NCBI GenBank assembly: GCA_947313745.1 | Contig: CAMZNG010000006.1 | Coordinates: 1 to 64,000, forward strand | Reading direction: 5' to 3' | From: an uncultured Mycoplasmataceae bacterium | GTDB taxonomy: Bacteria; Bacillota_I; Bacilli_A; Mycoplasmatales; Hepatoplasmataceae | DNA length: 64,000 nucleotides | Part shown: piece by piece, positions 15,357 to 57,584 of the stretch | Position numbering within the stretch: position 1 is the first letter of the stretch | Layout of the letters: each line of letters begins with the position of its first letter | Notes under the pieces: model-generated | The model's input: only the letters and a program-made list of their open reading frames with translations | Databases searched by the model: none | What the model was told of the DNA's origin: nothing | Made by a program: the position numbers and the translations under genes

Positions 15357-15893
15357 ATGAATAATGAAATTAAGAAATTAGTTATAACATCAATGTTTTT
15401 GGCTGCTTGTGGTGCTTTGAGTATTTTTCAAATACCATTACCTTTTATTGCATCCTATGCTGGGTTTGATTTAGCTATTATTCCTTTATTATTATCAAGG
15501 AGGTTTGTTGGATTAACAAAATCAATAGTGATCGCATTGATTTATCCATTTTTTACATTGATATCAGTTATTCCAAACTTTATTGGCGTTCTTTTTTTGA
15601 TGATGCAATCAACATCGATAGTTTTGATTGATTTTATATTTAATAATAAAAAATATAATATTTTTGGAATAATCATTTCTATAGTACTAATAACCATTAT
15701 AAGTGTAATAATTAATATATTTATAATAATGCCTTTATATGTTGGAGAACATACTTATTGAAGTAATCCAATCCCAAACATTGTTGCAGCAATTTTTACA
15801 TCCATTACCATTACATCAATAAGATTAATGGTCGGTTATGCACTTACTTGACCATTATGAACTTTATTTAATAGTGAAAGGTTTAAAAAATAG
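15357..15893 (+). CDS. ECF transporter S component-like membrane protein
   Basis: Substrate-binding membrane subunit of an energy-coupling factor vitamin/cofactor importer, which works with the shared EcfT/EcfA module encoded elsewhere. The 178-residue protein has about five to six hydrophobic segments, a short basic N-terminus, and the S-component pattern of a first helix followed by a loop with [17 protein letters not shown]. The substrate (riboflavin, folate, thiamine precursor or other) cannot be told from sequence. ATG at 15357 is preferred over 15336 because the upstream codons would overlap the TATAAT box. TGA Trp codons at 15759, 15849 and 15858. The stop is one base before the next ATG. 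Confidence 0.72.
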
Positions 15894-15894
15894 T

Positions 15895-16383
15895 ATGAAA
15901 ATATTAATTATTTCTGATGTTCATAAAAATATAAAACAAATGGATATTATACTATCCAAAAACAAAGACTATGATTTAAAAATATTTTTAGGAGATTTTG
16001 AATTATTTTCAAGAGAGAAACACAAAGAACAATTAAACAAATTTGATTTTTCGGTAACTGGAAATTGTGACATTCCTAATTTATCTAAAACATATGAATT
16101 CATTACATTAAATAATAATAAGATTTTAATAACACATGGACATATGTTTTCATCATTTTTAAAAAAAATAGATTTTAAAAAATTGAATGATTTTGCAAGA
16201 AAAAATAGTGCAAATATAATATTGCATGGACATGATCATATAGCAACAAATATAACTCAAAATAAAATAACAAGATTTAACCCTGGATCAATTTCATTTC
16301 CAAGAAATGGAAACAAACCTTCATATGGAACACTAACTATAAATAATGATGGCTCTTTTAACTTTAAACATCATTATATTTAA
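15895..16383 (+). CDS. YfcE/MJ0936-type metallophosphoesterase
   Basis: Small calcineurin-like phosphodiesterase. The 162-residue protein has all metal-binding motifs in order: SDVH (residues 7-10), GD (LGDFE), GNCD, THGH and HGHDH. Proteins of this size hydrolyse phosphodiesters such as bis-pNPP or cyclic nucleotides in vitro; the natural substrate is unknown. It starts one base after the ECF S-component stop and is probably co-transcribed. In-frame codons upstream of 15895 belong to the preceding gene. Confidence 0.88.
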   Translation: MKILIISDVHKNIKQMDIILSKNKDYDLKIFLGDFELFSREKHKEQLNKFDFSVTGNCDIPNLSKTYEFITLNNNKILITHGHMFSSFLKKIDFKKLNDFARKNSANIILHGHDHIATNITQNKITRFNPGSISFPRNGNKPSYGTLTINNDGSFNFKHHYI

Positions 16384-16454: not shown

Positions 16455-16531
16455 GCCCACGTATCTCAGTAGGATAGCGCACGTGCCTACTAAGCATGGG
16501 GTCGGAGGTTCGAATCCTTTCGTGGGCACCA
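16455..16531 (+). tRNA. tRNA-like gene, arginine-type body with ACU anticodon (possible pseudogene)
   Basis: Folds as a 77-nt cloverleaf with encoded CCA: acceptor GCCCACG/CGTGGGC, anticodon stem CGTGC/GCATG, T-arm GGAGG/CCTTT with TTCGAAT loop, 5-nt variable region. The anticodon loop CTACTAA reads ACU, formally a serine AGU anticodon, but the short variable loop and the loop/T-arm context resemble bacterial tRNA-Arg(UCU or CCU). The D-stem TCTC/GCGC has two mismatches (10:25 T-C and 12:23 T-C). Either a decaying arginine tRNA gene or an unusual tRNA. A run of T follows at 16533. Confidence 0.75.
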
Positions 16532-16556: not shown

Positions 16557-17249
16557 ATGAAAAAGAAATATTATGATGAAATTAAGGATAAAATTGATGA
16601 ATCTTTAAAAAAGAAGGATTATGATTTTGCAATTAAATTAATAAACGAAGAAATATCAATGCCATATATTCCGATGGAATTTGAAAATTACTTAATTGAA
16701 ACATTAAAAAAAATTCCATTAAACAATAATGAAGAGAGATATACATTTACAATTGAAAAAATAATTGATTTATTAATTAAGTTAGATGATGATAAGAATG
16801 ATTATTCTGAATTAATAAATCAATTAAATAAGTTTAATCTTGAAAAAAACCTTAATGAGATTACATATTTTTTTTTAAAGGCCAAAAATAAAAAAAATAT
16901 TTCATTGGTTTTTGATGAACTTTGCAAACAAAAAACAAATGTTATTTTGGATCTTGGTAATCCATCAGAAATAGAATCGATTGAAGAAACGGTTGAATAT
17001 ATTAGAGATAAGAAAAAAATGGAACTAACCTTGGATAAATATCCTCTATTAATTGAGCCAGGAAATGAATTATTAAAAGAAATATATTTAACAAAACATT
17101 TTGGACAAAAATTAGAAGAGGGGTTTGATGAGGTTGTTGTTTATACTTTATCAAAATTATTTTCATACCCAGATTTATTGAAAGAAATAAAAGACTTAAA
17201 AAACATACAAAATAAATTGAAAATGTTTAGTTCAATTAACAATTTATAA
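16557..17249 (+). CDS. DUF3196-type protein (MG237-like), unknown function
   Basis: A 230-residue soluble, mostly helical, charged protein without membrane segments. In Mycoplasma genitalium an uncharacterised helical protein (MG237) precedes tig (MG238) and lon (MG239); the same order here is the main argument for homology. The sequence shows repeated amphipathic helices resembling a TPR-like array and no catalytic motif. It lies 25 bases after the tRNA-like gene without a clear promoter or Shine-Dalgarno. A role with trigger factor or Lon would be guesswork from position. Confidence 0.7.
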   Translation: MKKKYYDEIKDKIDESLKKKDYDFAIKLINEEISMPYIPMEFENYLIETLKKIPLNNNEERYTFTIEKIIDLLIKLDDDKNDYSELINQLNKFNLEKNLNEITYFFLKAKNKKNISLVFDELCKQKTNVILDLGNPSEIESIEETVEYIRDKKKMELTLDKYPLLIEPGNELLKEIYLTKHFGQKLEEGFDEVVVYTLSKLFSYPDLLKEIKDLKNIQNKLKMFSSINNL

Positions 17250-17289: not shown

Positions 17290-18570
17290 ATGACAAAATT
17301 TAAATTAGAAAAAACAAATGAAATCGCTGAAGTTAAAATAAGTGCAAGCGGCGAACAATGAAAATTATTAATTGATAAATCAAAAAAGAAACTTATTGAT
17401 AACTTAGAATTAAAAGGGTTTAGAAAAGGAAAGGTTCCTTTAAACATTGCAAACAAAAATATTTCAATGGAAGAAGTTAGAAACAATGCTTCAAGTCTTT
17501 TATTGGATATCAACTATGAGAAAGCAATTGATTTATTAGCAAAGGAAAACATAGCAACTAGACCTCAGTTTAGTATTTTAAAAATCTCTGATAACGAGGT
17601 TGAAATAGCATTAAAATCAATTTTAATGCCCGAAGTTAAACTAGGCAATATGGATTCTATAAATGTTGAATATAAAAAGAAAAAGATAAATGAAAAAGAA
17701 CTAAAAGAAGAAGTAGATAAAATTAATAAATATTTAATTGAAAATAAGGAAATTTCTAATAAAGATGCAGTTATTAAAAAAGGAAATATTGTAAACATTA
17801 ACTATTTAGGAAAAGTAAATGGAAAACCTTTCGATGGTGGAGAAGGAAAAGACTTTGATTTAGAAATTGGTTCAAAATCATTCGTTGATAATTTTGAAGA
17901 TCAATTAATAGGAATGAAAAAAGGGGAAGAAAAAATAGTAAATGTAAAATTCCCTGATGAATATCCAGCAAAAAATCTAAAAGGGAAAAAAGCAACATTT
18001 GATGTTAAAATAAATGCTATTAAAGAAAAAATTACGTTATCTGGAAAAGCATTGCAAGAAAAACTTGAAACTTTAGGATTTGATTCAAAAGAGGAAATTA
18101 TTTTAAGAATCAAAGACTCTTTTGAAGACAGAATTAAAAACGAAGCAAATGACATTTTCTTTAGAAAATATATGGAAGAAATAATGAAATTAAAAGATAC
18201 TGTTATAAAAGTTCCTGAAGAGATTGTAAAACAACAAGTTGATGAAGAATGAAAAAGAATTGAAATGCAAGTTCAACAACAAGGGATGAAAGTTGAAGAT
18301 TATTTAAAAATGCTTGGAATGCCTAAAAAAGAATTTAAACAAAAAAATCTAAAAGAAGCATCAAGAAAAAGAGTGAAAGAAGGATTGGTATATTCAAAAC
18401 TAATTAGTGATTTTAAAATAAAAGTAACTAAAGAAGAACTTGAAAATGAATATATGAAACTTGCAATACTAAATAAAACAACAGTTGAAGATATAAAAAA
18501 AGAAGTTTCAAATAATTCATTAGAACAAAATATAATTTTTGAAAAACTTATTAATAAATTAAAAAAATAA
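17290..18570 (+). CDS. tig: Trigger factor
   Basis: Ribosome-associated chaperone with peptidyl-prolyl isomerase activity that receives nascent chains. The 426-residue protein has the N-terminal ribosome-binding domain with the signature near ELKGFRKGKVPLNIA (about residues 39-53), an FKBP-like domain (about 155-245; VNINYLGKVNGKPFDGGEG), and a helical C-terminal chaperone domain. ATG at 17290 is preceded by AAGGAG. TGA Trp codons lie at 17359 and 18250. It is followed 24 bases later by lon, with its own Shine-Dalgarno. Confidence 0.96.
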
Positions 18571-57499: not shown

Positions 57500-57579
57500 A
57501 AAGTGATAAAAAAATCACAACAACCGCACTTTATTAGGTATAAAGCGTAAGCACCTAATTAGGCGAGTCTATGGAGGTT
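57500..57579 (+). promoter_or_regulatory. Ribosomal protein L21 leader
   Basis: Structured 5' UTR of rplU: a GTGAT/ATCAC hairpin, then CGCACTTTA with TAAAGCG and TTAGGT with ACCTAA pairings, then GAGTCTATGGAGG containing the Shine-Dalgarno. The layout matches the Firmicute L21 leader family, in which L21 is thought to repress its own operon. A TAAAAT (57491-57496) is a candidate -10. Confidence 0.7.
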
Positions 57580-57584
57580 AACAA

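What the first reader, a model, noticed from the sequence alone, without database searches (positions are those of the whole stretch)
16455..16531. tRNA-like gene with an ACU anticodon on an arginine-like body
The cloverleaf has a complete acceptor, anticodon and T arm and an encoded CCA, but the anticodon loop CTACTAA gives ACU. Serine tRNAs have a long variable arm, absent here, whereas loop and T-arm context fit tRNA-Arg(UCU/CCU). The D-stem has two mismatches. It may be a decaying arginine tRNA gene, or a functional tRNA that is edited or used in an unusual way. If it is the only Arg tRNA for AGA codons, which dominate here, it cannot simply be dead.
Basis: partly seen in the sequence, partly recalled or inferred. 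Interest (0 to 1): 0.6.

Follow-up and report, generated by a model that had tools for sequence, protein, structure and literature searches.

The report
Disabled-looking copy of an essential tRNA
In the draft genome of a crustacean-type gut symbiont, the only gene that could read the commonest arginine codon has a changed anticodon and two broken pairs, so either the working copy is missing from the assembly or the assembled letters are wrong; a new way of reading the code is unlikely.

Summary
In detail: one tRNA gene at 16455-16531(+), anticodon ACU, no long arm, two D-stem mismatches, encoded CCA. It is the syntenic ortholog (yfcE - tRNA - hypothetical - tig) of tRNA-Arg(UCU). All nine held relatives of the family carry that tRNA with UCU, and the closest differs at only 4 of 77 bases. 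Three changes are unique to this genome: G10U, A23C, U34A. All are uncompensated transversions at near-invariant sites, and no other tRNA of the genome shows that. No second Arg(UCU/CCU) gene, or intact UCU arm, is in the assembly. AGA and AGG make up 525 of 536 Arg codons in the window, AGA still aligns with Arg in relatives, and AGU/AGC do not. TadA was not found. Published data show an A34 ACU tRNA reads AGU and not detectably AGA. As written, the gene cannot be the cell's AGA decoder. Best reading: a recently disabled copy whose intact partner is absent from the 24-contig, 83%-complete assembly (about 0.5), or a local consensus error (about 0.35). Working decoding by ACU or by editing is not excluded (about 0.05) but nothing supports it.

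The parts
16455..16531 (+). tRNA gene, ortholog of tRNA-Arg(UCU), anticodon read as ACU
   Evidence: ARAGORN; Rfam; alignment with nine relatives
16489..16491 (+). anticodon ACT (TCT in all nine relatives); change T to A at 16489 (position 34)
16464..16464 (+). position 10, G to T, breaks D-stem pair 10-25
16478..16478 (+). position 23, A to C, breaks D-stem pair 12-23
16528..16531 (+). discriminator A73 (also A in G002, G in the other relatives) and encoded CCA
15838..16383 (+). YfcE-family phosphodiesterase, upstream neighbour, same place in G001
16557..17249 (+). hypothetical protein, downstream neighbour, same place in G001 (38% identical)
17290..18570 (+). trigger factor tig, next gene, same order in G001

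Best explanation
This is the vertically inherited tRNA-Arg(UCU) gene of a mollicute of family Hepatoplasmataceae, still at its ancestral locus but recently disabled: the anticodon went from UCU to ACU and two D-stem pairs were broken. The cell reads its AGA/AGG arginine codons with an intact tRNA-Arg(UCU) gene that is not in this incomplete assembly. Shown: orthology, synteny, the three lineage-specific changes, continued use of AGA as arginine, absence of another UCU gene in the assembly. Inferred: that the changes are real, that the gene no longer works, and that an intact copy exists.
For: Orthology and locus: 95% identity with Arg(UCU) of G001, all nine family relatives have UCU, same neighbours yfcE and tig. 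Defect: three uncompensated transversions at sites that are otherwise near-invariant; the other 25 tRNAs of the genome show none, their unique changes being mostly transitions or paired changes. An AGA-reading tRNA must exist: 525 of 536 Arg codons are AGR, in 56 of 58 ORFs; AGA frequency equals that of G001 (25.0 against 24.4 per 1000) and AGA aligns with Arg in 162 of 265 columns, a rate like AAA with Lys. The rest of the tRNA is unchanged although proteins are only about 56% identical to G001, so the damage is recent. The gene as written cannot read AGA: PMC11066159 measured an A34 tRNA with anticodon ACU at 9.4% on AGU and below detection on AGA and AGC.
Against: No second Arg(UCU) or UCU arm found in 695 kb, and in the relatives typed by anticodon there is one each (G001 and G005 from single contigs). 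Every other isoacceptor of G001 is present in G000, so the assembly does not look short of tRNAs. The explanation needs both a duplication and a gap at the right place.
Confidence: 0.5

Rival explanations
1. The assembled letters are wrong or unrepresentative here: the real gene is an ordinary tRNA-Arg(UCU), and the three changes are consensus errors or come from a minor or chimeric read set.
For: It is the only candidate AGA reader in the assembly, the body is otherwise perfectly kept, all relatives have UCU at this place, and all three changes are transversions at functional sites, unlike changes in the other tRNAs. It needs no extra gene.
Against: Coding accuracy is good: no stop inside 58 ORFs puts the substitution error rate below about 0.0012 per base (ORFs were chosen as open frames, so this bound is approximate), and no frame break was seen against G001 proteins. 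Three errors within 26 bases would need a local cause. The site lies well inside a 142 kb contig.
Confidence: 0.35
2. The ACU tRNA is functional: charged with arginine and able to read AGA through an unusual wobble, or its A34 is changed to another base after transcription.
For: It is the only candidate for AGA in the assembly; ArgRS is present; Arg identity bases A20, C35, U36 and A73 are kept by inspection (roles from general knowledge); acceptor, anticodon and T stems and CCA are intact.
Against: No TadA found in the assembly. Measured ACU decoding excludes AGA within detection (PMC11066159). The genome's other A34 tRNA, Arg(ACG), appears to read only CGU: all 11 CGN codons end in U where 37% would be expected, P about 2e-5. 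AGU codons, which ACU would read, are used as often as in G001 (8.7 against 8.3 per 1000). The D-stem is damaged. No case was found in 320 genomes of the order or 395 of the class.
Confidence: 0.05
3. The gene is live as an arginine tRNA that reads AGU, so that serine AGU codons are partly or wholly read as arginine.
For: Anticodon ACU pairs with AGU; Arg identity bases are kept.
Against: AGU/AGC align with Arg in 0 of 114 columns against G001 and with Ser in 29; a normal tRNA-Ser(GCU) with long arm is present; this would also leave AGA unread.
Confidence: 0.02

Closest known systems
tRNA-Arg(UCU) of Mollicutes (read with cmnm5U34), present in all Mollicutes analysed in PMC3711424
   Same: Whole body, locus, Arg identity bases, AGA-dominated arginine usage
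   Different: Anticodon ACU instead of UCU; pairs 10-25 and 12-23 broken
Unmodified A34 tRNA-Arg(ACG) of TadA-less Mollicutes (PMC3711424)
   Same: An A34 arginine tRNA in a genome where TadA was not found
   Different: That one reads a four-codon box in which misreading is harmless; here the box is split between Ser and Arg
Engineered orthogonal tRNA with anticodon ACU in E. coli (PMC11066159)
   Same: Same A34 anticodon, unmodified
   Different: Artificial body; it read AGU and not AGA, the opposite of what this genome needs

Membership tests
tRNA (RF00005) | cloverleaf above the Rfam gathering score | tested here: met
   47.1 bits against 29
tRNA-Arg(UCU) orthologs of Hepatoplasmataceae | body sequence and gene neighbourhood | tested here: met
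   95% identity to G001, same yfcE and tig neighbours
tRNA-Arg(UCU) orthologs of Hepatoplasmataceae | anticodon UCU | tested here: not met
   ACU at 16489-16491
tRNA-Arg(UCU) orthologs of Hepatoplasmataceae | intact D stem | tested here: not met
   U10.C25 and U12.C23
tRNA-Arg (ArgRS substrate) | A20, C35, U36 and A or G at 73 | tested here: met
   read from the sequence; identity roles from general knowledge of bacterial ArgRS; charging itself not testable here
tRNA-Ser | long variable arm | tested here: not met
   short variable loop; both true Ser tRNAs, GCU and UGA, exist elsewhere in the genome
inosine-34 tRNA | TadA deaminase in the genome | tested here: not met
   No match to NF008113 or PF14437 in G000; the genome is incomplete

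The most novel reading that the evidence does not exclude
A bacterium whose only AGA/AGG decoder is a tRNA-Arg with a genomic ACU anticodon, made to work by an unknown change of A34 or by a ribosome that accepts A.A pairing at the wobble position.
Probability: 0.04. Interest if true: 0.85.

Novelty: new member of a known kind. Interest (0 to 1): 0.35.

Why it matters
AGA/AGG carry 98% of the arginine codons in this window, and tRNA-Arg(UCU) is the one arginine tRNA that PMC3711424 found in every Mollicute analysed. If the three changes are real and no other copy exists, the accepted decoding rules for this codon box would fail. If an intact copy exists, it is a snapshot of a core tRNA gene being replaced. 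If it is an error, it warns that single-base errors in draft genomes can imitate codon-reading novelties.

Tried and rejected
Second Arg(UCU/CCU) gene in the assembly: RF00005 at E up to 10 gave only one extra 12-bit fragment, and a UCU-arm pattern with up to 3 mismatches gave only this locus and one chance hit. Reassignment of AGU or AGA: alignment with relatives keeps AGA as Arg and AGU/AGC not as Arg. A34-to-inosine: no TadA; a deaminase-like hit in G001 scores best with ComEB, not TadA. Template-switch origin of U34A (it creates a 6-base inverted repeat with the D loop): about 10% of random single changes do the same, and the other two changes gain nothing. Other Arg-like ACU tRNAs: pattern hits in the order and class are not tRNAs wherever the locus was fetched and scanned with ARAGORN; order hits without a locus were judged from the matched letters only. 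Named relatives through trigger factor in genome contigs gave only distant bacteria.

Full report
What is there. The window holds one tRNA gene, 16455-16531(+), anticodon ACU. Acceptor stem, anticodon stem, T arm, short variable loop and CCA are in order; D-stem pairs 10-25 and 12-23 are both U.C. Its Rfam score, 47.1 bits, is the lowest of the genome's 26 tRNAs. MFE folding of this RNA no longer gives the normal D arm, while the UCU orthologs of two relatives do fold one.

Where it is. The genome is G000, 695 kb in 24 contigs, 83% complete; the window is the start of a 142 kb contig. UGA is read as Trp. The same-genus genome G001 has a contig of 615,622 bases and 25 tRNAs, which matches the published Candidatus Tyloplasma litorale; G005 (657,101) and G007 (606,194) match Ca. 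Hepatoplasma crinochetorum Av and Ca. H. scabrum (PMC10928387). These names are inferred from exact lengths. The organism is thus a Tyloplasma-like member of Hepatoplasmataceae, probably a gut symbiont of a crustacean (inference).

What the gene descends from. Every relative in the family (nine genomes, five genera counting its own) has an ortholog with anticodon UCU. G001 differs at four positions: 10, 23, 34 and 73. A73 is shared with G002, so the unique changes are G10U, A23C and U34A. In G001 the gene lies between yfcE and a hypothetical gene followed by tig, exactly as in the window.

How odd it is. For each of the 26 tRNAs, changes unique to G000 were counted at sites invariant in four relatives. 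The other 25 have 19 such changes, many of them paired stem changes, mostly transitions, with no uncompensated transversion. This gene has three of three (Fisher P about 7e-5 with an approximate denominator; the gene was picked because it looked odd, so this is descriptive). For a few tRNAs the fourth relative lacked the right partner in the fetched stretches, which only lowers the number of invariant sites there.

Why an AGA reader must exist. In 58 ORFs (18,458 codons) there are 440 AGA, 85 AGG and 11 CGT, and no CGC, CGA or CGG. AGA is as frequent as in G001 and aligns with Arg; AGU/AGC do not. The remaining 25 tRNAs include every other isoacceptor of G001, but arginine is left with only ACG. 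A loose tRNA search and a UCU-arm search found no other gene.

An A34 tRNA with anticodon ACU read AGU at 9.4% in E. coli, with AGC and AGA below detection (PMC11066159). TadA was not found here, and even inosine would add AGC, a serine codon. Within this genome, the A34 tRNA-Arg(ACG) seems to serve CGU alone: 11 of 11 CGN codons end in U, P about 2e-5 against the genome's own four-fold boxes. PMC3711424 reports that TadA-less Mollicutes can read all CGN with A34, so this last point is specific to this genome.

Verdict. The evidence leaves a defective copy with an unseen intact partner, or a wrong local consensus. Window accuracy argues against random error (below about 0.0012 substitutions per base, an approximate bound because the ORFs were chosen as open frames), and a missing second gene is possible in an 83%-complete draft. 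Neither can be shown with the data held here; the raw reads would decide. A new decoding mode has no positive support and stays as a low-probability reading.

Noticed in passing
window, all ORFs: CGN arginine codons are almost gone: 11 CGT and no CGC, CGA or CGG in 18,458 codons, in a genome where no TadA was found.
   Followed up: partly
G000:C8 and C20 (L007, L010) against G001: G000 has both tRNA-Trp(CCA) and tRNA-Trp(UCA) (ARAGORN calls the latter SeC), while the single-contig same-genus genome G001 has only the UCA one.
   Followed up: no
L182, ORF on the minus strand: G001 carries a 239 aa deaminase-like protein with HAE and PCxxC motifs that weakly matches ComEB and an anti-phage deaminase, not TadA.
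   Followed up: partly
L180 and L181: Only G003 and G004 of the family keep a TadA-like gene, beside a dnaX-like gene; the other genera appear to have lost it.
   Followed up: partly
window 57512-57580: A ribosomal protein L21 leader RNA precedes the L21 gene.
   Followed up: no
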